A stretch of DNA of 43,750 nt from Rhodovarius lipocyclicus (GTDB lineage: Bacteria > Pseudomonadota > Alphaproteobacteria > Acetobacterales > Acetobacteraceae). Location of the stretch: positions 1-43,750 of the forward strand of contig NZ_JAAABL010000034.1 of assembly GCF_009900765.1 (NCBI RefSeq), in the 5' to 3' direction. The position numbers and the translations under genes are program-made. Under the pieces are notes generated by a model. It saw only the letters and a list, made by a program, of their open reading frames with translations. It did no database searches and had not been told where the DNA came from. Positions 5,220 through 32,822 of the stretch are shown one piece after another. The stretch's first letter is position 1; every line of letters begins with the position of its first letter.

Positions 5220-5441
5220 GGGGAAGGCTCTGCCTTCCCCAGACCCCATCCGCTGGGGAGATAAGATCTCCCCAGGCCCCTGCGAGGAGTTTGGGGACAG
5301 CGCCAATATTATCCAATTGATATTATTATATAAATTTACCGGAAAAACCTTCGCAGGCTCAGGCGCCGTCCCCAAACTGATAAAAAGTAGTGGGGGGTCA
5401 AACGCATCGCGTTTGACGAGGGGGAAAGTCATTTCCCCCTC
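5220..5441. repeat. Composite intergenic repeat, copy A
   Basis: This is essentially all of the 345-base gap between the SDR gene and the Bug gene. Outer hairpins have perfect stems: 5220-5228/5232-5240 (9 bp, loop TCT), 5253-5262/5266-5275 (10 bp), 5397-5405/5409-5417 (9 bp, loop ATC) and 5418-5427/5432-5441 (10 bp). The core 5288-5381 is bounded by GTTTGGGGACAGCGCC and GGCGCCGTCCCCAAAC, 15 of 16 inverted. Its centre (about 5305-5350) is extremely AT-rich. On the minus strand the centre aligns with copies B and D (GAAGGT-TTTCC then a T/A tract). This copy lies upstream of the SDR operon, unlike the others. Confidence 0.8.
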
Positions 5442-5466
5442 AACCTTAATCGCCAGCGCAGCCCCC

Positions 5467-6417
5467 TCACCCCGTCCCGATCCGCGCCGCGATCGGTGTC
5501 CAGCGTGCCACTTCTTCCGCCACATGCTGTCCTGCCGCTTCCGGCGACGGGTCGGGCCACAATTCCACGCTGGCCGTCAGCAGCCGTTGCCGCGTGGCAT
5601 CCTGTGCCAGGGCGGCCAGTGCCGCGTCGCGCATCTGCGTGTCCATACCGGGCGGTGCGCCGGGGCGGCTGAACAGCACCTGCCAGGCCGTCAGCGCGTA
5701 GCCGGGCACATGTGCCCCGATCGGCGCCAGCCCGGGCAGCAGGGCGGAGGGCGCGGGGCCGGAGCTGGCCAGCAGCCGCACCCGGCCATGGCGCGCCAGC
5801 GGCGCCAGCAGGGTGGGGCTGTCGATCGTGAAGTGCATCCGGCCCGCCACCAGGTCCTGCACGGCGTTCGCCGCGGTGCGATAGGGCACGACGGTGAAGC
5901 GGCCCTGCGTCAATTGCTTCAATAGTTCCCCGGCCAGGTGGTTGGTGGCGCCGGGGTTGGTGGCGCCGTAATTCGCGGCTTCGCCTTCGCGGTCCAGCCA
6001 GGCCAGCAGCTCCGGCACGTCCCGCGCGGGCACGGAGGGATGCACGGCCAGCGCGAAGGGCTGGCTGCCGACCAGCGCCAGCGGCGTGAAATCCCGCACC
6101 GGGTTCAGGGGGAAGTTCGGGTAGACCGCCTGCATCACCGGGTGGTTGTTGGTGGCGATGAAGAAGGTGGCGCCGTCATTCGGCGCGCGATGGAAGGCGG
6201 CCGCCCCCACCGTGCTGCCGGCGCCGGGGATGTTTTCCGGCACCACGGGGCGGCCGAGCTGGTTCTGCAGGGCCTCGGCCAGGATGCGCCCCACCACATC
6301 CGTCACCCCGGCCACCCCCACCGGGATGATCAGCCGCAGCGGCCGCCTCTCCTGCGCCAAGGCGGGGCTGATGGCGGGGGTGGCGAGGAAAGGCAGCACT
6401 CGGCGGGCGATGCGCAT
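5467..6417 (-). CDS. Bug/TTT-family extracytoplasmic substrate-binding protein (1)
   Basis: It has 316 residues from ATG at 6415-6417, with GGAGAG seven bases upstream. An Arg-rich signal peptide ends near PALAQE. The mature part begins RPLRLIIPVGVAG and has PGAGSTVGAAAFHRAPNDG, the PGAG-type ligand loop of Bug receptors, and VPYRTAANAVQDLVAGRMHF. These periplasmic proteins bind small carboxylates or amides for tripartite tricarboxylate transporters. No membrane partner (TctA/TctB) is present in the window, so it is an orphan receptor. It is divergent from the NMT1-like gene, 69 bases away. An upstream in-frame extension to 7302 is a shadow of that gene. Confidence 0.9.
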   Translation of the reverse strand: MRIARRVLPFLATPAISPALAQERRPLRLIIPVGVAGVTDVVGRILAEALQNQLGRPVVPENIPGAGSTVGAAAFHRAPNDGATFFIATNNHPVMQAVYPNFPLNPVRDFTPLALVGSQPFALAVHPSVPARDVPELLAWLDREGEAANYGATNPGATNHLAGELLKQLTQGRFTVVPYRTAANAVQDLVAGRMHFTIDSPTLLAPLARHGRVRLLASSGPAPSALLPGLAPIGAHVPGYALTAWQVLFSRPGAPPGMDTQMRDAALAALAQDATRQRLLTASVELWPDPSPEAAGQHVAEEVARWTPIAARIGTG

Positions 6418-6486
6418 GGGGCTCTCCGGCATTCCGTTGGGCGCCGACATGGTGCAGCCTGCGGGCTGGTCCAGAAAGGTGAAAAG

Positions 6487-7377
6487 ATGCGCCCGATCCG
6501 TCTGCAGGAAACCTTCCGCGCGGTGTTCTACGTGCCGTTCTATGCCGCGCTGGCACGCGGGGCCTATGCGGCGGAGGGGGTGGAGGTAACCCTGCTGGAT
6601 GGCGGCGAGCCCGCCCGCGCCAAGGATGCGGTGCTGGAAGGCCGCGCCGAGATCGCCTGGGGCGGGCCGATGCGCCTGATGCTGGCCCATGATGCCGACC
6701 CCGCCTGCCCCTTGCGCGATTTCGGCGCGGCGGTGCTGGGGGACCCGTTCTTCCTGGTGGGGCGGGAGGCGCGGCCCGATTTCCGCCTGCGTGACCTGGC
6801 CGGGCTGCGCTTCGCCACCGTGGCCGAGGTGCCGACCCCCTGGTGGGCCTTGCAGGAGGACATCCGCCAGGACGGGCTGGACCCCGACAGCCTGCCCCGC
6901 CACACCACCGGCAGCATGCAGCAGAACGCCGAGGCGCTGCTGAACGGCGACCTCGATGTGATCCAGGTGTTCGAGCCCTTCGTGACGCGGCTGGAGGATG
7001 CGGGCTGCCATGTCTGGCACGCGGCGGCCAGCCGCGGGCCCACCGGCTACACCACCTTCATGTCCACCGTGGCCAACATGCGCGAATACGCGCCGGAATT
7101 CCGCGCCATGCTGCGCGGCCTGGGCAAGACGCAGGACTGGCTGCACGCCACCCCGGATGCCGAGGTGGCGGCCGTGGTGAAGCCGCTGTTCCCGGAGCTG
7201 GATGCGGAGCTGATCCAGCGCTGCATCGCGCGCTACCGGCCGCTGGGGATCTGGAGCCGCACGCCGTACTTCCCGCCCGAGCCGTGGGAGAAGCTGGAGC
7301 ACGCGATGTTCACGGCGGGGGTCATCAAGCGGAAGCCGGGCTGGGCCGCCTGCGTGGACAATTCGCTGATGGAGTGA
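6487..7377 (+). CDS. NMT1/THI5-like substrate-binding protein without signal peptide
   Basis: The protein has 296 residues. It has the periplasmic-binding-like fold seen in SsuA/NMT1 proteins: FRAVFYVPFYAALARGAYAAEGVEV, then GRAEIAWGGPMRLML, then a GSMQQNAEALLNGDLDVIQVFEP segment. No signal peptide is seen at the ATG at 6487, and no upstream in-frame sequence supplies one. An AAGGTG ribosome site sits just before the start. The CCCFC motif of THI5 pyrimidine synthases is absent. It has no ABC permease or ATPase beside it. It could be a cytoplasmic ligand sensor, a THI5-fold enzyme, or a binding protein exported another way. Confidence 0.8.
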   Translation: MRPIRLQETFRAVFYVPFYAALARGAYAAEGVEVTLLDGGEPARAKDAVLEGRAEIAWGGPMRLMLAHDADPACPLRDFGAAVLGDPFFLVGREARPDFRLRDLAGLRFATVAEVPTPWWALQEDIRQDGLDPDSLPRHTTGSMQQNAEALLNGDLDVIQVFEPFVTRLEDAGCHVWHAAASRGPTGYTTFMSTVANMREYAPEFRAMLRGLGKTQDWLHATPDAEVAAVVKPLFPELDAELIQRCIARYRPLGIWSRTPYFPPEPWEKLEHAMFTAGVIKRKPGWAACVDNSLME

Positions 7378-7393
7378 ATCCGGGCTGATCGGC

Positions 7394-7426
7394 TATACTT
7401 CCCGCCAGGAATTTCGAATTTCTGGC
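7394..7426 (+). promoter_or_regulatory. Promoter -10 and palindromic operator of the GntR gene
   Basis: A TATACT hexamer (7394-7399) is followed by a 23-base odd palindrome (7404-7426) with arms GCCAG...CTGGC and AATT...AATT around C7415; nine of eleven pairs match. It also reads as a direct repeat of GAATTTC at 7409-7415 and 7416-7422. It covers the expected transcription start and ends ten bases before the TTG start. Autorepression by the GntR protein is the natural inference. No good -35 box is visible. Confidence 0.6.
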
Positions 7427-7435
7427 GAGGGCCCC

Positions 7436-8110
7436 TTGGCCGATCACGAACACGCCGCCTCCACCATCGGCTCCCAGGTCTATGCCCGCCTGCGGGAGGA
7501 TGTGATCTCCGGCGTTCTGGCGCCCGGGTCCCGGCTGCATCTGGACAGCCTGCGCCAGCGCTATGGCGTGGGCATGACCCCGCTGCGGGAGGCGCTGTAC
7601 CGCCTCTCGGCCACCCTGCTGATCGAGGCGCATGACCAGCGCGGCTTCCGCGTCGCCGAGCTCAGCCTGTCGCATTTCGAGCAGGTGATCAGCGCGCGCG
7701 AACGCCTGGAATGCCTGCTGCTGGAGGATGCGATCCGCGACGGCGACGCCGTGTGGATGGAACGCACCGCCAGCGCCCACCAGGCGCTGGAAGCCCTGCC
7801 CATGTATCTGGACCCGGAGGGGCGGGTGCTGAACCTGGACTGGCGGGCCGCGCATCTGCGCTTCCATTACGAGCTGGCCTCGGGCGGGAAGCATTTCATC
7901 CAGAACCTGTTCCACCAGATGCTGTGGGACCACGCGACCCGCTATCGCAACCTGGTCCGCCCGGACCCCTTGCCGGAGGATGTGCTGCGCGCCGATCACG
8001 CCCGGCTGATGGAGGCCGTGCTGGAACGCGATACCGAGATGGCCGTGCTGGTCATGCGCCGGCATGTCCGGCACGGCTCGGCCGCGATCCTGGCGGCGCT
8101 GCGGGGGTAG
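7436..8110 (+). CDS. GntR family transcriptional regulator (FCD/FadR subfamily)
   Basis: The protein has 224 residues. The N-terminal winged helix runs IGSQVYARLREDVISGVLAPGSRLHLDSL...YGVGMTPLREALYRL, with the recognition-helix TPLREAL pattern of GntR. The C-terminal ligand domain has ERLECLLLEDAI and FHYELASGGKH, the FCD type that often binds a carboxylate and a metal. The start is TTG at 7436 behind GCGAGG; the next in-frame ATG lies within the DNA-binding domain. It probably controls the surrounding uptake and oxidation genes. It converges with the monooxygenase gene, leaving only three bases between stops. Confidence 0.92.
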   Translation: MADHEHAASTIGSQVYARLREDVISGVLAPGSRLHLDSLRQRYGVGMTPLREALYRLSATLLIEAHDQRGFRVAELSLSHFEQVISARERLECLLLEDAIRDGDAVWMERTASAHQALEALPMYLDPEGRVLNLDWRAAHLRFHYELASGGKHFIQNLFHQMLWDHATRYRNLVRPDPLPEDVLRADHARLMEAVLERDTEMAVLVMRRHVRHGSAAILAALRG

Positions 8111-8113
8111 GCC

Positions 8114-9442
8114 CTAGAAAAAGGCGTTGCGCGGCCGCGCCAGCCCCAGATTCTCGCGCAGCGTCGTGCCCTCGTATTCCGTGCGGAACAGGCCGCGGCG
8201 CTGCAATTCCGGCACCACCAGCCTGATGAAGCGTTCGAGGCCCGTGGGCACCACCGGGGCCGCGATCATGAAGCCGTCGCAGGCCTTGGAGGTGTACCAT
8301 TCCTCCATGATATCAGCGACCTGCTTCGCATCGCCCTTGAACATGTTGCCGCCCATCTGCGGCAGGATGCGGCGATAGGTCTGGCGCACCGTCAGCCCTT
8401 CCTCATGGGCCATGCGCAGGATGGCCTTGCCGATGCCGGTATGGCCGATGTGCTCCTCGTCGAATGTCGGCATGGGCTCATCCAGGGCATAGCCCTGCAT
8501 CTTCCGGCCCAGCATCTTCGACAGGTAATCGACCCCCACGGCCGGGGAGACGAGGTCCTCCAGCTGCTGGAACAGCGCCTCGGCTTCCTCGGCGGTCTCG
8601 CCCACGAAGATGGTCACGCCCGAGAGGATGCGCATGTCATCCGCCGTGCGGCCGAATTTCGGCAGGCGGCCCTTGATGTCGGCATACAGGCGCTGGGCGG
8701 CGGGCATGCTGCCCTCGATCGCGAAGACGCAATCGGCATGGGCGGCCGAGAGATCCTTGCCCGTCTCCGACTGCCCGGCCGAGAAGATCACCGGATGCCC
8801 CTGCGGCGAGCGCGGCGCGTTCAGCGGCCCGCGCACCTGGAAATGCGGGCCCTGGTGGTTCAGTACATGCACCTTCTCCGGGATCAGGAACTGGCCGCTG
8901 GCCTTGTCCTGCGGGAAGGCGCCGTCATCCCAGCTGTCCCACAGCCCCTTCACCACGGTGGCGAATTCCGCCGCGCGGTCATAGCGGGTGCCGCGCTCCA
9001 CATGCTCGGTGTGGGAGAAGTTGAGCGCGTCCTCGGGGTTCGAAGTGGTGACGAGGTTCCACCCCGCCCGCCCGCCGCTGAGGTGATCGAGCGAGGCGAA
9101 GCGGCGCGCCACGTGGAAGGGCTCGTCATAGGTGGTGGTGGCGGTGGCGACGAGCCCGATGTGCCGCGTCACCATGGACAGGGCGGACAGCAGCGTGACG
9201 GGTTCGAACACGCCCGGCCGGTCAGATGGGCTGGTGGCCGCGAACAAGGCGGGCTTGTCCAGCTGCCGCACGCCATTGCCGTCGGCCAGGAAGATCAGGT
9301 CGAATTTCCCCGCCTCCGCGATCTGGGCCAGGCGGGCGGCGTTCTGGATATTGGCGGCGGGATTGTCCCAGGCATCGGGGTGCCGCCATTCGCCCACATG
9401 GCTGCCCGAGGCATTGGCATTGGCGGCAAGGACCATCGGCAT
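8114..9442 (-). CDS. LLM-class flavin-dependent monooxygenase (NtaA/SnaA/DszA family)
   Basis: This 442-residue protein begins MVLAANANASGSHVGEWRHP and contains FDLIFLADGNGV, RHIGLVATATTTYDEPFHVARRFASLDHLSGGRAGWNLVTT, and PVIFSAGQSETGKDLSA. All are hallmarks of the NtaA/SnaA/DszA group of FMNH2-dependent monooxygenases that oxidise nitrilotriacetate, organosulfur compounds or related substrates. Such enzymes need a separate NAD(P)H:flavin reductase; one is encoded at 12053-12532. The ATG overlaps nothing but lies four bases after the stop of the upstream binding-protein gene, so they form an operon. The substrate cannot be read from the sequence. Confidence 0.93.
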   Translation of the reverse strand: MPMVLAANANASGSHVGEWRHPDAWDNPAANIQNAARLAQIAEAGKFDLIFLADGNGVRQLDKPALFAATSPSDRPGVFEPVTLLSALSMVTRHIGLVATATTTYDEPFHVARRFASLDHLSGGRAGWNLVTTSNPEDALNFSHTEHVERGTRYDRAAEFATVVKGLWDSWDDGAFPQDKASGQFLIPEKVHVLNHQGPHFQVRGPLNAPRSPQGHPVIFSAGQSETGKDLSAAHADCVFAIEGSMPAAQRLYADIKGRLPKFGRTADDMRILSGVTIFVGETAEEAEALFQQLEDLVSPAVGVDYLSKMLGRKMQGYALDEPMPTFDEEHIGHTGIGKAILRMAHEEGLTVRQTYRRILPQMGGNMFKGDAKQVADIMEEWYTSKACDGFMIAAPVVPTGLERFIRLVVPELQRRGLFRTEYEGTTLRENLGLARPRNAFF

Positions 9443-9446
9443 CGGA

Positions 9447-11033
9447 TCAGCCTCGTTTCAGGTTCCAGAAGACAGGGAAGCCCGTGACCATGCCCTGCAG
9501 GTTGCGGCGATAGGCGACGGGGGCAAAGAACTGGCCGAGCGGCACATAGGGCACGTCCCGGTAGGCGCACTCCTGAATGGCTTGGGCGATGCGCCGCTGG
9601 GCCGCGAGGTCCGGCGCGTCGAGCCAGGATTGGCGCAGCGCCTCCAGCTCCGGCAAATTGGGCCAGCCGGTCCAGGCATCGGCGCCGGTGCCCTGCAGGG
9701 ATTGGTGCACGGCCGGGTTGATGACCGAAAGCCCCGACCAGATGCCGAAATAGACGCTCCAGCCGCCCTGTTCGACGGGTTCCTTCTTCACCGCCCGCGC
9801 GCTGACGGTGCCCCAATCGGCCAGCTGGTAGTCCACGTTGAAGCCGAGCCTGGTGAGCATGTCGGCCGCCACATCGCTCGCGGCCTTCACCGAGGCACGG
9901 TCGGCCGCCCCCAGCACCACCACGCGCTCGCCCTTGTAGCCGGCGTCGATGATCTGCTGCTTCAGCCGCGCGATGTCCGGCTGGTCCACCTGCGCTGAGG
10001 TGCCCACATCCGACGCATAGGGCGTGCCAGGCGGGAAGAAGCCCACCCCGGTGCGGAACAGCTGCGGGTCGGTGCCCGCCATGGCGTGCATGAATTCCAG
10101 CTGGCTGGTGCCGGCCAGCACGGCGCGGCGGATCGCGGGGTTGTCGAAGGGCGGGTGCAGGAAGTTGAACCGCATGATCGGCAACCCGCCGCTGGGGTCG
10201 TTGATCTCCACCTTCACCTCGCGCCGGCGGCGCAGCAGCGGCAGGTAGTCCGGGGTGGGGGTTTCCCACCAATCCACCTCGCCATTCTGCAAGGCGGCCG
10301 CGGCTGTGGCGGCGTCGGGGATGATCACCCACTCCACGCGCTCGAAATGCGCGAGTTTGGGGCCGGCGGTCCAGCCCAGCTCGCCGGTTTCGCGGGGGCG
10401 GTAGGCCTCGTTCTTGGCGAAGACGATGCGCGCGCCGGTCACGCTCTGCTCGCGCAGGAATTTGTAGGGGCCGCTGCCCACCACCTCCGTCACTTGCGTG
10501 TGTCCGGGGGTGTTCGACAGCCGCTCCGGCATCACCACCATGGCCTGGGCGGTGGATTTCGCCAGGCCAAAGGTCAGCAGCGGAAAGGGGCGCTTCATGC
10601 GGAAGACGATGGTGCGGTCGTCCGGCGCGGTCAGCGCGTCGGTGGCGGCCATCAGCAGCCGGCCGAAACTGTCCCGCCCGCCCCAGCGGCGGATGCTGGC
10701 CACGCAATCGCGCGCCAGCACCGGCGTGCCGTCATGGAACATCAGCCCCGGGCGCAGCCTGATGGTCCACAGCTTGTGGTCATCCTCGGCGGTGAAGCCC
10801 TCGGCCATCTGCGGTTGCGGCAGCAGGTCTTTGTCCAGGCCGAACAGCGTGTCGTAGACGAGATACGCGTAGTTGCGCGTGACCTGGGTGGAGCTGAAGA
10901 TCGGATCGTAGCTGGTGATATCCGTCTGCGGAATGAAGCGCACCACGCGCTCCGATTGCGCGGCCACCAGCGCGGGCGCGCCCATGCCCGCCGTGCCGGC
11001 TGTCAAAGCCAGCACCTGTCTGCGTCCTGTCAT
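9447..11033 (-). CDS. Peptide-type ABC transporter substrate-binding protein (SBP family 5)
   Basis: It has 528 residues with a twin-arginine-like start MTGRRQVLALTAGTAGMGAPALVAA as export signal. The mature protein has DITSYDPIF and LLPQPQMAEGFTAEDDHKLWTIRLRPGLMFHDGTPV, then GTGPYKFL-like VVGSGPYKFLREQ, the standard pattern of DppA/OppA/NikA-like proteins. It is co-transcribed with the FMN monooxygenase downstream. No dpp-type permease or ATPase genes are in the window, so its transporter is elsewhere or lost. It is likely to feed the substrate of the monooxygenase. Confidence 0.93.
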   Translation of the reverse strand: MTGRRQVLALTAGTAGMGAPALVAAQSERVVRFIPQTDITSYDPIFSSTQVTRNYAYLVYDTLFGLDKDLLPQPQMAEGFTAEDDHKLWTIRLRPGLMFHDGTPVLARDCVASIRRWGGRDSFGRLLMAATDALTAPDDRTIVFRMKRPFPLLTFGLAKSTAQAMVVMPERLSNTPGHTQVTEVVGSGPYKFLREQSVTGARIVFAKNEAYRPRETGELGWTAGPKLAHFERVEWVIIPDAATAAAALQNGEVDWWETPTPDYLPLLRRRREVKVEINDPSGGLPIMRFNFLHPPFDNPAIRRAVLAGTSQLEFMHAMAGTDPQLFRTGVGFFPPGTPYASDVGTSAQVDQPDIARLKQQIIDAGYKGERVVVLGAADRASVKAASDVAADMLTRLGFNVDYQLADWGTVSARAVKKEPVEQGGWSVYFGIWSGLSVINPAVHQSLQGTGADAWTGWPNLPELEALRQSWLDAPDLAAQRRIAQAIQECAYRDVPYVPLGQFFAPVAYRRNLQGMVTGFPVFWNLKRG

Positions 11034-11155
11034 CCCATGCCCCCGAAAGCCTGGATGTGATGCCGCGTTGTCTGCGTTTCCGGGGGCAGCCTAGGGGATC
11101 GGGGCAGGGGGTCAATGGATTTTCGAAATTTTCGGCCGGGCGGAAAAGACCGCCT

Positions 11156-11171
11156 CCGCCCGGCCGGGCGG
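11156..11171 (-). terminator. Palindrome/terminator after the dienelactone hydrolase gene
   Basis: A perfect 16-base palindrome CCGCCCGGCCGGGCGG abuts the hydrolase stop. On the minus strand it is followed by AGGCGGTCTTTT, so it is probably the transcript end of the hydrolase gene. Confidence 0.55.
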
Positions 11172-11879
11172 TCAGCCCAGGGTTTTCACCAGCAGCTCCG
11201 CCGAGCGGCCCGCCGCGATCGTGGCCGCCCGCGCGTCATAGCTGTGCGCGTTCAGCCGCGCGAAGGCATGGTCCACCCCCGGATAGACATAGGCCTTGGC
11301 CAGCCCGTGCCCTTCCAGCGCCGCCACGATCTTCGCCCGCGCCTCCGGGGGCACGAATTTGTCCTTCTCGGCGATGTGCAGGATGGTGGGCGCCGTGATT
11401 TTGGCCGCATCGCCCAGCAGCCCGTCCAGCCCCACGCCGTAATAGCTGATGTGGCACTGGGCATCGCTGTCCAGCGCCAGCATGACGGCCAGCCGCCCGC
11501 CCAGGCAGAAACCCATACTGCCGACCTTGCCATTGCAGCCGGGCAGGGCGCGGGCCGCGGCGATGGTGGCCTTCAGATCCTCCATCCCCTTCGCCTGGTC
11601 CATGCCGTTCATATAGGCGAAGGCCTTCTCCCATTCCGTCTGGCCCGCGTCGGGGTCCAGTTCCACGCCCGGCTGCTGGCGCCAGAACAGGTCGGGGGCG
11701 ATGGCGAAATAGCCCATGCTGGCCACCCAGTCCGACAGGGCGCGCATGGTGCGGTTCACGCCGAAGATTTCCTGGATCATCACCACCGCACCCTTCGGGG
11801 TGCTGGTGTCGGCGGGGGCGGCCAGATAGGCCTGGAAGCTGCCGCTGCCATCGGTGGCGGGGATCGTGATCTGGGTCAT
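11172..11879 (-). CDS. Dienelactone hydrolase family protein (carboxymethylenebutenolidase)
   Basis: The 235-residue alpha/beta hydrolase has the dienelactone hydrolase triad almost at the Pseudomonas positions: C125 in GSMGFCLGG, D173 in AEKDKF and H204 in PGVDHAF. E37 in IQEIFG corresponds to the conserved glutamate that activates the cysteine. The family opens lactones such as 4-carboxymethylenebut-2-en-4-olide in chlorocatechol breakdown, but many members have other esters as substrates. It has an AGGAGG ribosome site. It is divergent from the flavin reductase gene and downstream of no visible catechol genes, so the substrate is unknown. Confidence 0.93.
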   Translation of the reverse strand: MTQITIPATDGSGSFQAYLAAPADTSTPKGAVVMIQEIFGVNRTMRALSDWVASMGYFAIAPDLFWRQQPGVELDPDAGQTEWEKAFAYMNGMDQAKGMEDLKATIAAARALPGCNGKVGSMGFCLGGRLAVMLALDSDAQCHISYYGVGLDGLLGDAAKITAPTILHIAEKDKFVPPEARAKIVAALEGHGLAKAYVYPGVDHAFARLNAHSYDARAATIAAGRSAELLVKTLG

Positions 11880-12052
11880 GGGGCCCTCCTGTGGTCGAAT
11901 AGGGGGCTATCGTCGCGCGCCTGAAGCCGCCCGGCTATCCCTTTGGATGCGCGGCACGTCTGGACGGCGCGTCCCCTTCGCAGGATGCTGGCGCCCGATT
12001 GGGGCCCGGGACACGGGCCGGGGCGGCACCGGGCCGCCAGGAAGGGTTGAGA

Positions 12053-12532
12053 ATGGAAAAGCAGGATTTCCGCAACGGCATGTCCCGTCTGGCCGCCGCG
12101 GTGAACGTGATCACCACTGGTGGTCAGGCCGGCCGCGCGGGCTTCACCGCCAGCGCCGTCACCAGCGTGACCGACGAGCCGCCGACCCTGCTGGTCTGCA
12201 TGAACCGCAACTACAGCGCGGCCGACACCTTCGCCGCCAACGGCGTGCTGTGCGTGAACACGCTGGGCGCCGGGCAGGAGAATGTGTCCGACACCTTCGC
12301 CGGCCGCCACGGGCTGGAAGGCGCCGAGCGCTTCACCGTGGGCGAATGGGAAACGCTCGCCACCGGCGCCCCCGCCCTGCAGGAAGCCGCGGCCAGCTTC
12401 GACTGCGAGATCAGGGAAGTGGTCGAAAAAGGCAGCCACAAGGTGATCTTCGCCGAGGTGAAGGCCGTGCGGCTGGGCCAGGATGCCGGCGGGCTGGTCT
12501 ACTTCAACCGGGGCTATCACCTGGTGCGCTGA
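12053..12532 (+). CDS. Flavin reductase (HpaC/NtaB-type) family protein
   Basis: The protein has 159 residues from ATG at 12053, with AGGAAGGG just upstream. FRNGMSRLAAAVNVITT, GFTASAVTSVTDEPPTLLVCMN, and LCVNTLGAGQENVSDTFAG are the flavin-binding segments of the flavin reductase-like domain. The protein supplies reduced FMN or FAD to a partner monooxygenase. The LLM-class enzyme at 8114-9442 is the obvious partner inside the window, although the genes are 2.6 kb apart and on opposite strands. The longer frame from 11999 lacks family likeness. Confidence 0.9.
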   Translation: MEKQDFRNGMSRLAAAVNVITTGGQAGRAGFTASAVTSVTDEPPTLLVCMNRNYSAADTFAANGVLCVNTLGAGQENVSDTFAGRHGLEGAERFTVGEWETLATGAPALQEAAASFDCEIREVVEKGSHKVIFAEVKAVRLGQDAGGLVYFNRGYHLVR

Positions 12533-12549
12533 GGGGAGGGCGCCCGTCA

Positions 12550-12771
12550 GGGGCTCCGCCCCCGACACCCCCGCCAGGACCGTGCTCGGTCCTGGACCTA
12601 GATCAGTTTGGTGCTGACCTTGGGAAGGTGTTTCCTATTGATTTTTATAATGAAAATGGCGCTATGCCTGCCAAGGTAAGGCGCCAAACTGATGGGTTTC
12701 AAGGGCCTTTCGGCCTTTGGCGGGGAGCCGAGGGGCAGAGCCCCTCGGTGGGGGTTCGGGGGCAACGCCCC
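12550..12771. repeat. Composite intergenic repeat, copy B
   Basis: It fills the gap between the convergent flavin reductase and thiE genes. The modules in order are: GGGGC/GCCCC hairpin (12550-12562); a 9-bp stem CCAGGACCG/CGGTCCTGG (12574-12595); core 12602-12693 with arms ATCAGTTTGGTGC and GCGCCAAACTGAT; a GGGCCTTTCGGCC module; a 9-bp stem CCGAGGGGC/GCCCCTCGG with loop AGA (12728-12748); and a GGGGC/GCCCC hairpin (12759-12771). The core contains ATTGATTTTTATAATGAAAA, which recurs exactly in copy D on the opposite strand. Confidence 0.85.
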
Positions 12772-12780
12772 TGAGGCGCC

Positions 12781-13401: not shown

Positions 13402-13432
13402 GGGGGCTTCTGCCCCCATGCCGCGGGTGGCG

Positions 13433-15801: not shown

Positions 15802-15805
15802 GATC

Positions 15806-16381: not shown

Positions 16382-16392
16382 GGGTTTTCGTC

Positions 16393-16412
16393 ATTTCAGT
16401 CCTTACTGAAAT
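16393..16412 (-). promoter_or_regulatory. Operator palindrome upstream of gbsR-cydAB
   Basis: A perfect inverted repeat ATTTCAGT-N4-ACTGAAAT lies 11 bases before the regulator ATG. On the minus strand a CGTAAT -10-like box (16411-16416) and TTGCGG (16432-16437; spacing only 15) precede it, so the palindrome would cover the transcription start. It is the best candidate site for the adjacent GbsR/MarR protein. It overlaps the last base of the glycosyltransferase stop codon. Confidence 0.65.
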
Positions 16413-18827: not shown

Positions 18828-18843
18828 GCGGGGAAGGCGGCGT

Positions 18844-19060
18844 GCGAGAGGGGCTTTGCCCCCCTCGCGCTCCCCCCACCAAAGGCCGAAAGGCCCTTGG
18901 AACCCAATTATTTGGAAGTTCGGGGTGGGAGCACCGACAGGCAGCCTGGTCGGGAGCACGCTCCGTGCCCCCACCCCGAACTTCCAAACCTAACTGATGG
19001 GGTCCAGGGGCCTTTCGGCTCCTGGCGGGTGGGGTGCGGGGAGGGCAGAGCCCTTCCCGC
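18844..19060. repeat. Composite intergenic repeat, copy C
   Basis: It lies between the convergent yqgE and polyprenyl synthase genes. The outer hairpins are 18844-18854/18858-18868 (11 bp, one mismatch, loop TTT) and 19036-19046/19050-19060 (11 bp, loop AGA). The AAAGGCCGAAAGGCCCTTGG module (starting at 18881) is identical to copy D. The core differs: a 19-bp perfect inverted repeat, TTTGGAAGTTCGGGGTGGG at 18911-18929 and its complement at 18970-18988, extends to about 24 bp with one mismatch. CTAACTGATGGGG remains at the right arm. So flanks are shared and the centre has been exchanged. Confidence 0.8.
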
Positions 19061-19086
19061 ATGCGACTTCCTAGCCTGGTCGCGCC

Positions 19087-20528: not shown

Positions 20529-20640
20529 GACCGGCGCTCCTGCATCGAGGGGTAGATTTGGGCCTAGGTATGGGCCGTGAGGGGCGTGGCCGCAACCGGG
20601 GGGCACGCTATGCTGATGAAAGATGGGGGGAGAACGGGGG

Positions 20641-21549: not shown

Positions 21550-21557
21550 ACGGCCGG

Positions 21558-21628: not shown

Positions 21629-21756
21629 CCGCGCGGCGCGCCCGATGCCCAATTCCCGAGCATCGCCAACCCTTTCTGTGCCTGGCCGCCGCAATCCTGT
21701 GTATGGCGGCCCCTGTTCGCTTGCTACTGCGGGGAGCATAGACACGGAGACAGCCG

Positions 21757-24436: not shown

Positions 24437-24453
24437 GGCTTACCCCTCTCTCG

Positions 24454-26109: not shown

Positions 26110-26490
26110 GTCGGGTTCTCATACATCCGGAGGACCGTAGGACTGCATGGCGAGGCATGCAATAAAACTGTCATAATGCCCCTCGCGCACGCGGCGCTGG
26201 TATTTCGCCGCCATCTCGTGCATAGGGGCCGCGCTGGCTGGCCTGTTACAGGGCTTGCCTTCAGCGGCGCGCCCTCAGCCGGCGCAGCTGCCCGTACCGG
26301 AGATGATCCGGCCCGGCATGGCATTTCCGGCCATGTGGGCGGCCTCAACCCTCTCGCCCCATTCCGGGACGACGGGCCCATCCGCACCGCATCGCCCGAA
26401 ATGCCGCATGCCAGACGGGTATCTGCGCAGTCTCGGCCGCCGTTTCGCAAACCCCGGGGGTGCCATGGGGCACCCCATGAAGGACGACGC
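26110..26490 (+). other. Long intergenic region and pnp leader
   Basis: These 381 bases separate divergent Na/Pi and pnp genes. No rpsO gene, the common neighbour of pnp, is present. A CATAAT box at 26172-26177 could be a -10. A perfect 8-bp stem GGGGTGCC/GGCACCCC (26457-26476, loop ATGG) ends 14 bases before the pnp ATG and might be an RNase III or autoregulation target as in E. coli, though it is much shorter. The frame of pnp stays open through the whole gap without family likeness. Confidence 0.5.
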
Positions 26491-28722
26491 ATGTTCGACA
26501 AGTATTTCCGCAAGGACATCGCCTGGGGCGGTCAGATCCTGTCGCTGGAGACAGGCAAGATCGCCCGCCAGGCCGATGGCGCGGTCATGGCCCGCCTGGG
26601 CGACACCATCGTGCTCTGCACCGTGGTCGGCGCCCGCGGCGTGAAGCCGGGTCAGGATTTCTTCCCCCTGACCGTGAACTACCAGGAAAAGGCCTTCGCG
26701 GCCGGCAAGATCCCCGGTGGCTTCTTCAAGCGTGAAGGCCGCCCGAGCGAGAACGAGACCCTCGTCTCCCGCCTCATCGACCGCCCCCTGCGCCCCCTCT
26801 TCCCCGAGGGCTTCCGCAACGAGGTGCAGGTCATCGCGACCGTGCTGTCGCATGACACGGAAAACAACCCGGATATCGTGGCGCTGGTCGGCTGCTCCGC
26901 CGCGCTGACGCTGTCGGGCATTCCCTTCTTCGGCCCGGTCGGCGCCGCCCGCGTGGGCTTCATCGACGGCCAGTACGTGCTGAACCCGACCGCGGCCCAG
27001 GTCGCGCAGTCCCGCCTGGACCTGGTGCTCGCCGGCACCGCCGAGGGCGTGCTGATGGTCGAGTCCGAGGCCGACGAGCTGCCGGAAGACGTGATGCTGG
27101 GCGCGCTGGAATTCGGCCACAAGGCCTTCCAGCCGGTCATCCAGGGCATCATCGAGCTCGCCGAGCACGCCGCCAAGGAGCCTTGGGACGTGGTGCTGGA
27201 GGACCCCGCGATCGAGGCCCTGAAGGCCCGCATCAAGGCACTCGGCACCGCCGGCATGACGGAGGCCTACAAGGTCACCGAGAAGCTCTCCCGCCAGAAG
27301 GCGGTGGGCGAGGCCAAGAAGGCCGTGGTCGCGGCGCTTGAGGCCGAGGGCGCCGATGTCGCCGCCGCCAAGGGCCTGCTGAAGGAGCTCGAGGCGGACG
27401 TGGTCCGCAACGCGATCCTGGACACGGGCATCCGCATCGACGGCCGCGACACCAAGACCGTGCGCCCGATCCTGGCCGAGGTGGGCGTTCTGCCCCGCGC
27501 CCATGGTTCGGCCCTGTTCACCCGTGGCGAGACCCAGGCCCTGTGCGTGGTCACGCTGGGCACCGGCCAGGACGAGCAGATCATCGACAGCCTCACGGGC
27601 GAATACCGTGAGAACTTCATGCTGCACTACAACTTCCCCCCGTACTCGGTGAACGAGACGGGCCGCATGGGCAGCCCCGGCCGCCGCGAGATCGGCCATG
27701 GCAAGCTGGCCTGGCGCGCCGTGCACCCCGTGCTGCCGGAGAAGGAGAAGTTCCCGTACACGATCCGCATCGTGTCCGAGATCACGGAGAGCAACGGCTC
27801 CTCCTCGATGGCGACGGTGTGCGGCGCGACCCTGTCCATGATGGACGCGGGCGTGCCCCTGCGCCGCCCCGTGGCCGGCATCGCCATGGGCCTGATCAAG
27901 GAAGACCGTGGCTACGCCGTCCTCTCCGACATCCTGGGCGACGAGGATCACCTCGGCGACATGGACTTCAAGGTGGCCGGCACCGATGCGGGCGTGACCA
28001 GCCTGCAGATGGACATCAAGATCACGTCCATCACGCTGGAAATCATGAAGGTCGCGCTGGCCCAGGCCAAGGATGGTCGCATCCATATCCTGGGTGAGAT
28101 GGCCAAGGGCATTTCCGGTGCCCGCAGCCAGGTGGCCGCCACCGCGCCGCGCATCACCGTGATCAACGTGCCGAAGGAGAAGATCCGCGACGTGATCGGC
28201 ACCGGCGGCAAGGTGATCCGCGAGATCGTCGAGCAGACCGGCTGCAAGATCGACATCGAGGATGACGGCACGATCAAGATCGCGTCCGCCAGCCAGGAGA
28301 ACACGGACGCGGCCATCGCCAAGATCCGCGGCATCACGGCCGAGGCCGAGATCGGCGCGATCTACACGGGCAAGGTCGTGAAGACCGCCGATTTCGGCGC
28401 CTTCGTGAACTTCCTCGGCGCCAAGGACGGCCTGGTCCACATCTCCGAGCTGGCCAATGAGCGCGTGAACAAGACCACCGATGTCGTCAAGGAAGGCGAT
28501 GCCGTGAAGGTCAAGGTCATCGGCTTCGACGACCGCGGCAAGGTGAAGCTGTCCATGCGCGTGGTCGACCAGGCCACGGGTGCGGACATCACCGAGCAGG
28601 TGGGCGAGCGCCGCCCGCGTGCCGAGGGCGAGGAAGGTGGCGAAGGCCGCGAGCGTGGTGGCGACCGTGACCGCGCCGACCGTGGCGACCGCCGCCCGCG
28701 CCGTCCGCGCCGCGACGACTGA
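26491..28722 (+). CDS. pnp: Polyribonucleotide nucleotidyltransferase (PNPase)
   Basis: The protein has 743 residues. There are two RNase PH domains; the second holds [17 protein letters not shown] and [22 protein letters not shown], the phosphate- and metal-binding core. The KH domain has [16 protein letters not shown] with the GXXG loop, and the S1 domain follows ([31 protein letters not shown]). The tail is a low-complexity Arg/Asp/Gly run. PNPase degrades RNA from the 3' end in the degradosome. The ATG at 26491 has AAGGA upstream and gives the standard N-terminus [10 protein letters not shown]; the frame is open much further upstream but without homology. Confidence 0.97.
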
Positions 28723-28745
28723 TCACGCTTCCCGCGTGGAACAAG

Positions 28746-28777
28746 GCGCCGCTCCCCACCGGGGGCGGCGCTTTTTT
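28746..28777 (+). terminator. Intrinsic terminator after pnp
   Basis: An 11-bp stem with one bulge, GCGCCGCTCCCC against GGGGGCGGCGC, loop ACC, is followed by TTTTTT (28772-28777). It lies 24 bases after the pnp stop and four bases before the end of the convergent Bug gene. Confidence 0.9.
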
Positions 28778-28781
28778 GTGG

Positions 28782-29747
28782 CTACTCCACGCGGATATTC
28801 GCCTGCCGGATCACATCGGCATAGGTCTGCGTGTAGCGCGTGATTTCCGTGCCGAAGCGCTCCGCGCCATGGGCCAGCACGGTATAGCCCACCGCCTCCA
28901 GCCGGGCTCGCACCTCGGGCTGGGTCAGCGCCTTCACCCAGGCGGCCTCCAGCCGGGCCCGCGCCGGGGAGGGCACATCGGCCCGCGCCAGCAAGCCGAA
29001 CCAACTGTCGGACAATACGAGCGGGTAGCCCAGCTCGGCCATGGTCGGGACATCGGGCAGTTCCGGCGCCCGCTCCGTGGCGGAGATGCCAAGCGCCCGC
29101 ATCTGCCCGCCCTGGATCATCTGCAGCACATCCGGCTTGGTGGCGAACATGAACTGGATGCGGTTGCCCATCAGGTCGTTATTCGCGGGCGCGTTGCCGT
29201 TATAGGGCACATGGATGGCATTCAACCCCGCCGCCGCCACGAATTGCTGGCCGCCCAGATGGTTCGATGTGCCGATGCCGTAGCTGCCGAAGGACAGCCC
29301 GTCGCCCGCGCGCTTGCCGGCCGCGACAAGCCCCGCGAAATCCCGCGCGACCGATGGGTGGACGACCAGCACATGCGCCGCCACCGTCGCCATGCAGATG
29401 GGCGCGAAATCGCGCAGCGAATTGTAGGGCATGGAAGGCCGCAACGTGATGTTGGCGGCGAAGCTGTTGGCCACCATTAGCAGCGTATGGCCATCGGCCG
29501 GGGCCCGGGCGGTTTCCTGGGTGCCGACGACGGTGGCCCCGCCGGGGCGGTAGTCCATGACCACCGCCTGGCCCAGATCGGCTTGCAGCGCGGCCTGGGC
29601 CAGGCGCACCACGGGGTCCATGGCGCCGCCGGCGGTGAAGGGGATGATGACGCGGATGGGCTGGCTGGGCGACCAGCCGCCTTGGGCACGGGCGGCACCG
29701 CCCAGGAAGGGCAGGGCAAGGGCAAGGCTGCGGCGGCTGAATCGCAT
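28782..29747 (-). CDS. Bug/TTT-family extracytoplasmic substrate-binding protein (2)
   Basis: The protein has 321 residues. The signal peptide MRFSRRSLALALPFLGGAARAQ precedes PIRVIIPFTAGGAMDPVVRLAQ and the ligand loop YRPGGATVVGTQETARAPADGHTLLM. SFGSYGIGTSNHLGG and PYNGNAPANNDLMGNRIQFMF are further Bug signatures. It is monocistronic and ends in the pnp terminator region. Its membrane partner is not in the window. About 290 bases upstream, up to 30038, hold no gene. Confidence 0.92.
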   Translation of the reverse strand: MRFSRRSLALALPFLGGAARAQGGWSPSQPIRVIIPFTAGGAMDPVVRLAQAALQADLGQAVVMDYRPGGATVVGTQETARAPADGHTLLMVANSFAANITLRPSMPYNSLRDFAPICMATVAAHVLVVHPSVARDFAGLVAAGKRAGDGLSFGSYGIGTSNHLGGQQFVAAAGLNAIHVPYNGNAPANNDLMGNRIQFMFATKPDVLQMIQGGQMRALGISATERAPELPDVPTMAELGYPLVLSDSWFGLLARADVPSPARARLEAAWVKALTQPEVRARLEAVGYTVLAHGAERFGTEITRYTQTYADVIRQANIRVE

Positions 29748-30037
29748 GGACGTCTCCGGAATGATGCCCCGATGCTCGGTGGACCGGCCCGCCGCCTCAA
29801 GCCGCCCGTGAGGTGGGAACGGCTTCGCCAGCCTGGCGGCTGAACGCGAAATGTGCAGTTCGTGCTATTTCCGAGGCTTTTAGTGGGATATTGGCCTCCG
29901 CGCGGAAGGTCTGGCGCGTCAACGGGCCCGGCCCGGCCCGGAAGCCGCATTGCAGGGCCTCCACACGCGTGATCGCCCCTTGGGTCCGGGCCGTTTTGCT
30001 ATTATGTGACCCCGATTATGTCTGAGGATGTCTTGCC

Positions 30038-31438
30038 GTGAAGGCCATCAACGCAATCCGCATGGGCGGCGCCGAGGTTCTGCCCCTGGTGGAGGGTGGC
30101 AAGGGTGTCGCCGTTTCCAATGGTGTGACCGCCGGTTCGTGGTCCGCCGCGGGCGGTGTGGGCACGCTGAGCGCCGTGAATGCCGACAGCTACGATGAGA
30201 ATGGCGAGGTGATCCGCCAGATCTATCATGGCCGCACCCGGCGCGAACGGCATGAGGAGCTGGTGGAATACGCCATCCGCGGCAGCATCGCCCAGGCGGA
30301 GCGCGCCCGTGACCTGGCCGGCCCCCGGGCCCGCATCCACGCCAATGTGCTGTGGGAGATGGGCGGGGCCGAGCGCGTGCTGCGCGGCATGCTGGAAGGC
30401 GCCAAGGGCCTGATCAACGGCATCACCTGCGGCGCTGGCATGCCCTACAAGCTGGCCGAGATCGCGCGCGAGTTCAGCGTGCACTATTACCCCATCGTCT
30501 CCTCCGGCCGTGCCTTCAGCGCGCTGTGGAAGCGCAGCTATTCCAAGGTGGGCGAATGGCTGGGCGGCGTGGTGTATGAGGACCCCTGGCTGGCCGGCGG
30601 CCACAACGGCCTGTCCAACAGCGAGGACCCCCGCAAGCCCGAACCCCCCTTCGGCCGCGTGCTGGCGCTGCGCCAGCAGATGCGCGCCTTCGGCCTGGGC
30701 GACACGCCCATCATCATGGCCGGCGGCGTGTGGTGGCTGGAGGAATGGGAGGACTGGATCGACAACCCCGAGCTCGGTCCCATCGCCTTCCAGTTCGGCA
30801 CCCGCCCGCTGCTGACCCAGGAAAGCCCGATCGGCGACGAGTGGAAGGCCCGGCTGATGCAGCTGGAGCCGGGCGACGTCTCGCTGCAGAACTTCTCGCC
30901 CACCGGCTTCTACAGCTCTGCCGTGCGCAATGATTTCCTGCGCCAGCTCGAAGGCCGCAGCGAGCGCCAGATCGCCTACTCGCCCGAGGCCGTGGGCGAC
31001 CACACCGCCGAATTCCTGGTGGGCCAGCGCCGCCGCCCCGTCTTCGTCACGCCGCATGACCGCGAGCGCGCCGAGACCTGGGAGGCCGCGGGCTTCACCG
31101 AGGCCCTGCGCACCCCCGACAGCACCCTGGTGTTCGAAACGCCGGAGGTCTCGCGTGAGGTGCTGAAGGACCAGGCCGATTGCATGGGCTGCCTCAGCCA
31201 GTGCCGCTTCTCCAACTGGTCGCAGCACTCGCCGGACCTGACCAACGGCAAGAAGGCCGATCCGCGCAGCTTCTGCATCCAGAAGAGCTTGCAGAACATC
31301 GCCCATGGCGGCTCCACCGAGCACAACCTGATGTTCGCGGGCCACAACGCCCCGCGCTTCAAGTCCGATCCCTTCTATTCCAACGGCTTCGTCCCCACGG
31401 TGAAGCAGCTGGTCGAGAGGATCATGACGGGCCGCTGA
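30038..31438 (+). CDS. Nitronate monooxygenase-like NAD(P)H-dependent flavin oxidoreductase
   Basis: The protein has 466 residues. The FMN-binding TIM barrel includes GKGVAVSNGVTAGSWSAAGGVGTLSAVN at the start, ANVLWEMGG, LINGITCGAGMP, PIVSSGRAFSALW, IIMAGGVWW and FQFGTRPLLTQESP. The first 340 residues fit the 2-nitropropane dioxygenase family. The C-terminal part is longer than in the classic enzyme and holds C382, C385, C389 and C413 (CMGCLSQC then SFC), a pattern that could bind an iron-sulfur cluster or zinc. The start is GTG with GAGGATG upstream; ATG does not occur in a better place. A TATTAT box at 30000-30005 may be the -10. The substrate is unknown. Confidence 0.85.
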   Translation: MKAINAIRMGGAEVLPLVEGGKGVAVSNGVTAGSWSAAGGVGTLSAVNADSYDENGEVIRQIYHGRTRRERHEELVEYAIRGSIAQAERARDLAGPRARIHANVLWEMGGAERVLRGMLEGAKGLINGITCGAGMPYKLAEIAREFSVHYYPIVSSGRAFSALWKRSYSKVGEWLGGVVYEDPWLAGGHNGLSNSEDPRKPEPPFGRVLALRQQMRAFGLGDTPIIMAGGVWWLEEWEDWIDNPELGPIAFQFGTRPLLTQESPIGDEWKARLMQLEPGDVSLQNFSPTGFYSSAVRNDFLRQLEGRSERQIAYSPEAVGDHTAEFLVGQRRRPVFVTPHDRERAETWEAAGFTEALRTPDSTLVFETPEVSREVLKDQADCMGCLSQCRFSNWSQHSPDLTNGKKADPRSFCIQKSLQNIAHGGSTEHNLMFAGHNAPRFKSDPFYSNGFVPTVKQLVERIMTGR

Positions 31439-31578
31439 TCCGCGGCCCGCTGCTTTCCTGATCTGGCGCAAGCCCGATGTGCCCCAAGCATGGCCATATG
31501 CCTGGGGGACATCGGTCTGTGCTTGACCGGATGCCGGTTCAGGACAAATTAACAAATGGAAACGCCCTGGAGGACGTC

Positions 31579-32559
31579 ATGCCTGAATTGACCCGCCGCG
31601 CCGCGCTGGCGATCCCTGCCCTCGGCCTTGCGGCCCCCGCCTTGGCCCAGCAGGGCTATCCCAGCCGGCCCATCACGATGATCGTCCCCTTCGCGGCCGG
31701 TGGCCCGACGGACACGGTGGCCCGTCTGCTGGCGACCGAGATGAGCAAGGACCTGGGCGGTTCCGTGGTGGTGGAGAATGTGGGCGGCGCCGGCGGCACG
31801 CTGGGCGCGCAGCGCACGGCCCAGGCCCGGCCGGATGGCTACAACATCCTGTGCCACCACATCGGCATGGCGACCATCCCGACCCTGTACCGCCGCCTGG
31901 CCTATGACCCGGTGAATGGCTTCGAGACGATCGGCATGATCACCGAAGTGCCGATGACCATCATCGCCCGTCGCAACATTCCCGCCAACAACCTGCAGGA
32001 GCTGGTGGCGCTGGTGCGGCGTGAGGGCATGGGCATCAACCTGGCCAATGCGGGCGTGGGGGCGGCCAGCCATCTGTGCGGCCTGCTGTTCCAGACCGCC
32101 ATCGGCACCCAGACCACCACCGTGCCCTATCGCGGCACGGGCCCGGCCATGAACGACCTGGTGGGCGGCACGGTGGACCTGATGTGCGACCAGACCACCA
32201 ACACCACCGAGCAGATCCGCGCCGGCACCGTGCGCGCCTTCGCGGTGACCACGCCGCAGCGCGTCGAGTCGCTGCCCAACATCCCCACCGCCGCCGAGGC
32301 CGGGCTGCCGAACATGGAAGTCAGCATCTGGCATGGGCTGTACGCGCCCAAGGGCACGCCGGCCGAGATCGTGAACCGCCTGTCGCAGAGCCTGCAAGTG
32401 GCGCTGCGCGTGCCCACGCTGGTGCAGCGCTTCAACGAGCTGGGCACCAGCCCGGTGCCGCAGGACCGCGCGACCCCCGCCTATCACCGCCAGTTCTGGC
32501 AGGCGGACATCGCCCGCTGGCGGCCGATCATCCAGGCGGCGGGCGCTTTCGCGGATTGA
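31579..32559 (+). CDS. Bug/TTT-family extracytoplasmic substrate-binding protein (3)
   Basis: The protein has 326 residues from ATG at 31579, preceded by TGGAGGACGTC. The signal peptide ends at PALAQQ. The mature part has RPITMIVPFAAGGPTDTVARLLA, ENVGGAGGTLGAQRTAQARPDGYNIL and VPYRGTGPAMNDLVGGTVDLMCDQ, a textbook Bug receptor. It lies 140 bases downstream of the flavin oxidoreductase. The gap has an imperfect stem-loop (about 31480-31510) and TTGACC at 31523-31528 followed by an AT-rich run that might be its own promoter. No TctAB partner is seen. Confidence 0.93.
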   Translation: MPELTRRAALAIPALGLAAPALAQQGYPSRPITMIVPFAAGGPTDTVARLLATEMSKDLGGSVVVENVGGAGGTLGAQRTAQARPDGYNILCHHIGMATIPTLYRRLAYDPVNGFETIGMITEVPMTIIARRNIPANNLQELVALVRREGMGINLANAGVGAASHLCGLLFQTAIGTQTTTVPYRGTGPAMNDLVGGTVDLMCDQTTNTTEQIRAGTVRAFAVTTPQRVESLPNIPTAAEAGLPNMEVSIWHGLYAPKGTPAEIVNRLSQSLQVALRVPTLVQRFNELGTSPVPQDRATPAYHRQFWQADIARWRPIIQAAGAFAD

Positions 32560-32574
32560 TGCCAGGGGGCTCCC

Positions 32575-32822
32575 GGGGGCTTCGCCCCCCGGCCCCCAGC
32601 AAGGGGCTCTGCCCCTTGCATCCCCGCCAAAGGCCGAAAGGCCCTTGGAACCCATGAGTTGGCGCCCTACCTTGGCAGGTGGGGCGCCATTTTCATTATA
32701 AAAATCAATGGTAAACACCTTCCCTGGATCAGCGCCAAACTGATCTAGGTCCAGGACCGAGCACGGTCCTGGCGGGGTCCAGGGGCGGAGCCCCTGGTGG
32801 GGGCCTCGGGGGGCGAAGCCCC
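32575..32822. repeat. Composite intergenic repeat, copy D
   Basis: It lies between the convergent Bug (3) and hyuB genes, inverted relative to copy B. Modules on the plus strand are: GGGGGC/GCCCCC (32575-32589), an 8-bp stem CAAGGGGC/GCCCCTTG with loop TCT (32600-32618), the AAAGGCCGAAAGGCCCTTGG module, core 32654-32744 (left arm degenerate ATGAGTTGGCGCC, right arm GCGCCAAACTGAT), the CCAGGACCG/CGGTCCTGG stem, CCAGGGGC/GCCCCTGG with loop GGA (32779-32797) and GGGGC/GCCCC (32810-32822). The complement of this copy matches copy B nearly base for base across the core. Confidence 0.85.

What the first reader, a model, noticed from the sequence alone, without database searches (positions are those of the whole stretch)
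5220..32822. Family of composite intergenic repeats with hairpin flanks and an exchangeable core
Four gaps (5220-5441, 12550-12771, 18844-19060, 32575-32822) hold the same architecture: outer G-rich hairpins with 3-nt loops, inner hairpin modules (AAAGGCCGAAAGGCCCTTGG; CCAGGACCG/CGGTCCTGG), and a core of about 90 bases bounded by inverted ATCAGTTTGG-type arms. Copies B and the complement of D match nearly base for base, including ATTGATTTTTATAATGAAAA, a striking AT-rich stretch in a ~70% GC genome. Copy A is a diverged relative. In copy C the core is replaced by another palindrome while flanks are kept. Three copies sit between convergent genes. It could be a non-autonomous mobile element (MITE or REP-like), a bidirectional terminator, or a nucleoid/structural element. 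I know no named family that fits.
Basis: seen in the sequence. Interest (0 to 1): 0.78.

Follow-up and report, generated by a model that had tools for sequence, protein, structure and literature searches.

The report
Modular palindromic repeats at gene ends
The four gaps hold members of a large family of nested-hairpin DNA repeats that sit just after genes, mostly between genes pointing at each other, and swap their parts from copy to copy; they work like known REP/BIME repeats of other bacteria but could not be filed under them.

Summary
Copies A-D are real, and the genome carries many relatives: the right inner hairpin alone occurs 53 times exactly, 91 times with up to 3 mismatches, reversed control 0. 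Each copy nests GC-rich hairpins with covarying stems around one of several cores: AT-rich 58, A-type 21, C-type 15, GAAAA..TTTTC palindrome 11, other 17, of 122. One hairpin shell carries three core classes, and the AT core sits in six shells.
Of 163 places, 80 are convergent, 43 tandem, 6 divergent (copy A, one of these, is really tandem), 33 at contig edges, 1 inside a gene. Elements start about 20 nt after stop codons. In a related species 5 of 8 collinear sites lack the element; of the 3 kept, one is largely exchanged and two have diverged cores.
Best reading: a mosaic, non-autonomous palindromic repeat family of Acetobacteraceae that works like BIME/REP and is retained at gene 3' ends, where it probably forms double-sided RNA 3'-end structures. 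No RAYT, no tag enrichment, no fixed termini. Only 44 of 122 have a hairpin plus T-tract, so termination is not shown in general. New variant of a known kind.

The parts
5215..5445 (+). Copy A, whole element (A subfamily), tandem gap downstream of a TctC gene (minus strand)
5218..5242 (.). A outer hairpin CTGGGGAAGG..CCTTCCCCAG
5253..5275 (.). A inner hairpin CTGGGGAGATAAGATCTCCCCAG
5287..5381 (+). A core, AT-rich, right arm CCAAACTGAT 5372-5381
5397..5441 (.). A right hairpins GTCAAACGC..GCGTTTGAC and GAGGGGGAAA..TTTCCCCCTC
12540..12780 (+). Copy B, whole element, between convergent flavin-reductase-like and thiamine-phosphate-synthase-like genes
12546..12566 (.). B hairpin GTCAGGGGC-TCC-GCCCCCGAC
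12574..12595 (.). B inner left hairpin CCAGGACCGTGCTCGGTCCTGG
12602..12693 (+). B core with arms ATCAGTTTGG / CCAAACTGAT and AT-rich stretch 12637-12656
12700..12719 (.). B inner right hairpin CAAGGGCC-TTTC-GGCCTTTG
12727..12748 (.). B hairpin CCGAGGGGC-AGA-GCCCCTCGG
12756..12774 (.). B outermost right hairpin GGGGGC-AAC-GCCCC; the same place is where IS-like ends join in other copies
18840..19064 (+). Copy C, related hairpin shell with a different core, between convergent AlgH-like and polyprenyl-synthase-like genes
18911..18988 (+). C core: palindrome with 27-nt arms GGAAGTT..AACTTCC around 24 nt
32575..32822 (-). Copy D, B-type in opposite orientation, between convergent TctC and hydantoinase-B-like genes

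Best explanation
A multi-copy, mosaic family of non-autonomous palindromic repeats. Each copy nests pairs of GC-rich hairpins, one on each side in inverted orientation, around an exchangeable core, so that the ~220 bp can fold as a branched tree or as one long hairpin, on either strand (sequence, covariation and predicted folds). Copies sit right after stop codons, mostly between convergent genes (shown with my own gene calls). Transcribed from either side, a copy most likely acts as a double-sided RNA 3'-end structure that stalls or terminates polymerase, or caps the mRNA against 3' exonucleases (inferred). It is probably retained because such gaps tolerate it rather than because every gene pair needs it: most convergent pairs do without. 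Copies are present at some orthologous sites and absent at others between species, and at shared sites hairpins and cores can be exchanged (shown at two sites, with partial changes at three). The likely route is recombination or template switching between dispersed hairpin copies, perhaps seeded by small hairpins already at gene ends (inferred; no transposase identified).
For: Copy number and controls. Position: 80 convergent, 43 tandem, 6 divergent, 33 contig-edge, 1 inside a gene, of 163; stop codon to element median 19.5 nt (53 convergent) and 22 nt (22 tandem). Fold energy: 116 of 118 below all 20 of their shuffles, median z -7.8. Covariation on all 209 distinct hairpins, five outer pairs not fixed by the selection: 83.8% of cells paired, shuffles 55.7% (largest 59.1 of 500); 354 double changes, shuffles 145 (largest 172); slid registers 24-56%. 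The structure tool on a hand-picked 65 of these gives 92.6% against 73.8% over nine pairs, four of them fixed by the selection. 85 different H5 hairpins among 141 sides. Recognised inner hairpins face each other in 80 of 81 elements; shell AAAGGCCGAAA/AGGAGCCGAAA carries C 12, AT 9, core-3 1, other 1. Related species: 5 of 8 collinear sites empty in G001; exchange at C4:7311 and C4:53351, partial change at C4:141056, C54:14156 and C59:11771. 800 kb of G001: 12 of 12 convergent gaps of 200-400 bp have four or more hairpins, tandem 8 of 35, divergent 1 of 17.
Against: Hairpin plus T-tract on at least one strand in only 44 of 122 copies (52 of 244 strands, shuffles 11-24); 0 of 15 C-type, 1 of 21 A-type. 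In G001, 85 of 111 convergent gaps are under 120 bp, 70 under 60 bp, and 1 of the 85 has three or more hairpins, so it is no general terminator. At C21:31032 own and G001 both keep a textbook T-tract terminator and own has the element in addition. Covariation among paralogues can also come from recombination or from a need for palindromy in DNA. No expression data. The route of spread is unproven, and gain cannot be told from loss at most sites.
Confidence: 0.55

Rival explanations
1. Bidirectional transcription terminators proper: functional 3'-end signals under selection, alike only because the same compact hairpins are reused.
For: 3'-end position; core-3 class has hairpin plus T-tract in 10 of 11, AT class in 29 of 58; T-tract hits about threefold over shuffles; long convergent gaps in G001 all hold hairpin nests.
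Against: Many copies are 80-96% identical over ~220 bp including the core, more than reuse of hairpins needs; no T-tract in 78 of 122; most convergent pairs lack it; a site with its own terminator has the element as well.
Confidence: 0.25
2. Non-autonomous transposon (MITE or REP type) moved in trans by a transposase.
For: Sites without the element in relatives: 5 of 8 collinear in G001; copy A absent beside the TctC gene in the 3 relatives that have that gene, G001, G007, G008; high identity of dispersed copies.
Against: Termini are variable hairpins, not one inverted repeat; no clear target duplication in five empty sites; no Y1 transposase in 9 of 9 genus genomes; GTAG and CGTC not enriched. 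Other transposase families were not searched for.
Confidence: 0.15
3. DNA-level structural element (cruciform, nucleoid or topology site between convergent genes).
For: Near-palindromes on both strands; TATAAT in the AT cores (80 sites in all elements, shuffles 0-7) and a few IHF-like sites (5, shuffles 0-1); convergent bias fits supercoil-rich sites.
Against: IHF-like sites in 5 of 122 only; tandem copies are common; no binding data; in one orthologous pair the core diverges faster than the shell.
Confidence: 0.05

Closest known systems
REP / BIME (bacterial interspersed mosaic elements)
   Same: Short palindromic units, often in opposite orientation, between convergent or unidirectional genes, downstream of coding regions (passages of PMC3733652 and PMC1525189 read); targets of insertion sequences (passages of PMC1525189 read)
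   Different: No GTAG/CGTC enrichment, no RAYT found in the genus, nesting around a larger exchangeable core, different sequences
Bidirectional intrinsic terminators
   Same: GC-rich inverted repeats at 3' ends of convergent genes; core-3 copies have an A-tract and a T-tract
   Different: Most copies lack the T-tract and are long, repeated, alignable sequences
MITEs (names such as RUP, Correia, ERIC recalled; passages of the review PMC2229807 read)
   Same: ~100-230 bp, intergenic, dispersed, present or absent between species
   Different: No constant terminal repeats, no target duplication seen, no partner transposase found
RIME of rhizobia (recalled) and long intergenic repeats with methylation sites of Caulobacter (recalled; part of the title seen in a reference of PMC2229807)
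   Same: Alphaproteobacterial intergenic repeats
   Different: No sequence compared with either; GANTC is depleted here

Membership tests
REP/BIME | Short palindromic units, dispersed, arranged in inverted pairs | tested here: met
   (80 of 81 facing pairs; the units are nearly self-complementary, so a few bases set the orientation)
REP/BIME | GTAG or CGTC tag at the foot of the palindrome | tested here: not met
   Counted anywhere in the elements, not at the foot only: GTAG 56, shuffles 65-81; CGTC 85, shuffles 85-114
REP/BIME | RAYT (Y1 transposase) in the genome | tested here: not met
   0 of 9 genus genomes, control rings in 5 of 14; draft genomes, 69-99% complete
REP/BIME | Location 3' of genes, convergent or unidirectional | tested here: met
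MITE | Constant terminal inverted repeats | tested here: not met
   outer hairpins differ from copy to copy
MITE | Target-site duplication | tested here: inconclusive
   5 empty sites aligned, none shows one, but intergenic flanks are diverged
MITE | Full-length element with a transposase and the same ends | tested here: inconclusive
   Only Y1_Tnp was searched by family; the 44 exact arms fall at element places or single unassigned places, not examined one by one for transposase genes
Intrinsic terminator | GC-rich hairpin followed by a T-tract | tested here: not met
   44 of 122 copies have it on at least one strand, 78 do not
Intrinsic terminator | RNA 3' ends form there | not testable with these tools
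   no transcript data
GANTC-linked alpha-proteobacterial repeats | GANTC methylation sites | tested here: not met
   26 both-strand matches in 13 of 122 elements, shuffles 140-190; the window as a whole is depleted too, 17 against 126-139
Any Rfam family | Covariance-model match at gathering score | tested here: not met
   only a tRNA in the window

The most novel reading that the evidence does not exclude
Acetobacteraceae carry a system of palindrome modules without a dedicated transposase: hairpins and cores are gained, swapped and nested in place at gene 3' ends by hairpin-templated recombination, so that palindromic structure rather than sequence is what is inherited at these gaps.
Probability: 0.25. 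Interest if true: 0.7.

Novelty: new variant of a known kind. Interest (0 to 1): 0.5.

Why it matters
It gives more than a hundred natural places in one genome, plus relatives at orthologous sites, in which palindromic structure is kept while sequence modules turn over, with no transposase found so far. That makes the old question of how REP-like repeats spread, and whether they serve their host, testable outside the RAYT-linked families. The elements also look like landing sites for insertion sequences and cause assembly breaks.

Tried and rejected
RAYT partner: none in the own genome or in 9 genus genomes. Rfam: no match beyond a tRNA. REP tags: not enriched. GANTC link: rejected. Plasmid carriage: no match of copy B, nor of one IS-like end, in the plasmid collection. 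Synteny breaks at the elements: gaps B and C lie at breaks against G001, but three further breaks in the same 15.9 kb do not, so I make no claim. A first gene-calling script took antisense ORFs in this GC-rich DNA and was replaced (then 28). A first core classifier over-called the C core; core counts are and shell-by-core counts. The 65 hairpins given to the pair counter were picked by hand from a random 110 of 209 and leave out many poorly paired ones, so that result is inflated; the count on all 209 replaces it and gives the same conclusion. A tabulation of outer-module pairs left 41 of 122 untyped and is not used. C32:25625 against L189 shares only one flanking gene, so I dropped it as a case of exchange. 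Literature: the listings showed no title or abstract describing this family; passages of PMC3733652, PMC1525189 and PMC2229807 were read, no whole paper. No claim is made beyond those searches.
Full report
WHAT IS THERE. Searching the own assembly (4.59 Mb, 111 contigs, window = contig C34) with B, A and C gives three groups: B-type 40 places at 80-100% identity, A-type 37 places at E 7e-12 or better, many partial, C-type 13 long matches plus many flank-only ones. Each search scored only 40 first-look candidates (of 236, 62 and 189), so these are lower bounds. The inner hairpin AAGGGCCTTTCGGCCTTTGGCGGG occurs 53 times exactly and 91 times with up to 3 mismatches, reversed control 0; the arm CCAAACTGAT 44 times, control 0. 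Merging the places of these five searches gives 163, not all of them complete copies; 122 lie in called convergent or tandem gaps under 420 bp and are the set used below unless stated.

ARCHITECTURE. Reading inward from either end: an outermost hairpin, a GC-rich hairpin with a three-base loop, a linker such as ACCCCCGCC paired with GGCGGGG on the other side, an inner hairpin, a linker ACCCC/GGGTT, and the core. Cores: AT-rich 58, A-type 21, C-type 15, core-3 palindrome (GAAAA..GGGGACATCGTCCCC..TTTTC) 11, other 17. Two inner hairpins from a list of nine were recognised in 81 of 122 elements (one in 35, none in 6); 80 of the 81 pairs face each other, though the units are nearly self-complementary. 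The shell AAAGGCCGAAA/AGGAGCCGAAA carries C 12, AT 9, core-3 1, other 1; the AT core sits in six shells. So the exchangeable core is real, and the hairpins are exchangeable too.

STRUCTURE. 116 of 118 gaps fold more stably than all 20 of their shuffles, median z -7.8; some fold as one continuous hairpin over nearly their whole length, others as a tree. Among 141 sides the second right hairpin has 85 different sequences and the inner one 22. On all 209 distinct GGGC-NNN-GCCC hairpins of the 122 elements, the five outer pairs not fixed by the selection are paired in 83.8% of cells against 55.7% in shuffles (largest of 500: 59.1), with 354 double changes against 145 (largest 172); slid registers reach at most 56%. 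The structure tool on a hand-picked 65 of them gave 92.6% against 73.8%; that subset left out many poor pairers and is not relied on. Relatedness of the copies is only partly controlled.

POSITION. With a codon-model gene caller of my own, 80 of 163 places are convergent, 43 tandem, 6 divergent, 33 at contig edges and 1 inside a gene. Copy A is one of the six divergent calls, but Pfam shows a TctC gene on the minus strand that my caller missed, so it is tandem. Elements start about 20 nt after stop codons; in tandem gaps they lie nearer the upstream stop (median 22) than the downstream start (49), n = 22. In the fetched own regions 80 of 81 convergent gaps of 120 bp or more hold an element, but these regions were chosen around elements. 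The less biased view is 800 kb of G001: 12 of 12 convergent gaps of 200-400 bp have four or more hairpins, tandem 8 of 35, divergent 1 of 17; yet 85 of 111 convergent gaps are below 120 bp, and 1 of those 85 has three or more hairpins. So the element explains why some convergent gaps are long; it is not a requirement of convergent genes.

HISTORY. In G001 (same genus, flanking genes about 80-94% identical), 16 of 122 own elements had both flanks inside the 800 kb fetched; 8 were adjacent there with a gap under 300 bp and 8 were not; 20 more had one flank only. Of the 8, three hold an element (C4:53351, C4:141056, C59:11771) and five do not (gaps 69, 101, -8, 49 and 60 bp against 329, 237, 283, 263 and 310). 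At C21:31032 both species keep a textbook terminator and own has the element after it. Where both have one, hairpins and core may be exchanged (C4:7311 with L196, C4:53351 with L213) or the shell is largely kept while core or single hairpins change (C4:141056 with L194, C54:14156 with L212, C59:11771). C4:7311 and C54:14156 came from G001 loci chosen for holding elements. Copy A is absent in G007 and G008, where the same two genes are neighbours, and beside the TctC gene of G001, where another gene lies between; G002 and G005 lack the matching TctC stretch and cannot be compared. Flanks of B and C are not adjacent in G001; the relatives' flanks looked at show no full element, only none, a single hairpin, a small nest or a decayed half. 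D was not tested. Small nests and single hairpins at such places suggest a graded series up to the full element.

DISTRIBUTION. In the genus, 8 of 9 genomes (own included) match at E 1e-5 or better; one locus each from six of the seven genomes other than own and G001 shows a similar tree with other modules; the seventh had no match. In 150 family genomes 7 (own included) match at 1e-12, with only 5 candidates scored each. An exact 32-mer scan of named genomes gives 10 stretches, among them Rhodovarius crocodyli, Paracraurococcus ruber and Acetobacteraceae MAGs. The Rhodovarius stretch is a full element; the two Paracraurococcus ones show right-hand hairpins only.

FUNCTION. Hairpin plus T-tract: 52 of 244 strands against 11-24 in shuffles; 44 of 122 copies have it on at least one strand, 8 on both; core-3 10 of 11, AT 29 of 58, C-type 0 of 15, A-type 1 of 21. 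Position and double-sided palindromes favour an RNA 3'-end role; turnover and the many convergent pairs without one favour a tolerated repeat. I therefore commit to a BIME-like mosaic repeat with a likely 3'-end effect, at 0.55.

KNOWN KINDS. REP/BIME is the nearest (passages of PMC3733652 and PMC1525189 read): palindromic units, often in opposite orientation, downstream of genes, convergent or unidirectional, hit by insertion sequences. Two features tested were not met: the tags and the RAYT. So it works like a BIME and is not filed as one.

Noticed in passing
contig ends C4, C6, C10, C15, C16, C18, C20, C24, C28, C29, C35, C37, C39, C41, C43, C44, C45, C47, C48, C52, C61, C66, C70, C72, C76, C86 of G000 (loci L003-L186): 30 of 32 elements printed at contig edges run into one of five recurrent IS-like ends: two kinds inside AT-rich cores (8 GGGCTTGTTGAGATT, 6 GGGTCTC), three in or next to an outer hairpin loop (11 TGTTCAGAC, 3 GTACAAACCGG, 2 TCTACAACCGTG). 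One GGGCTTG end encodes a DDE-transposase-like fragment (below the Pfam cut-off; two other fragments gave nothing). The elements look like IS landing sites.
   Followed up: partly
window whole; elements: GANTC is strongly depleted in the window (17 against 126-139 in shuffles) and in the elements, but not in 105 element-free gaps (30 against 26-38).
   Followed up: partly
AT-type and A-type cores, e.g. window 12637-12656: TATAAT occurs 80 times in 53 of 122 elements against 0-7 in shuffles; it could be a promoter-like or easily melted site in a 70% GC genome.
   Followed up: no
G000 C21:31032 (locus L051): A textbook T-tract terminator stands before a complete composite element; G001 has the terminator only.
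   Followed up: yes
window 33711-42472: Two gene blocks about 5.8 kb apart repeat each other at 70-75% (repeats D1, D2, D4, D6, D7, D9), as in a tandem duplication.
   Followed up: no
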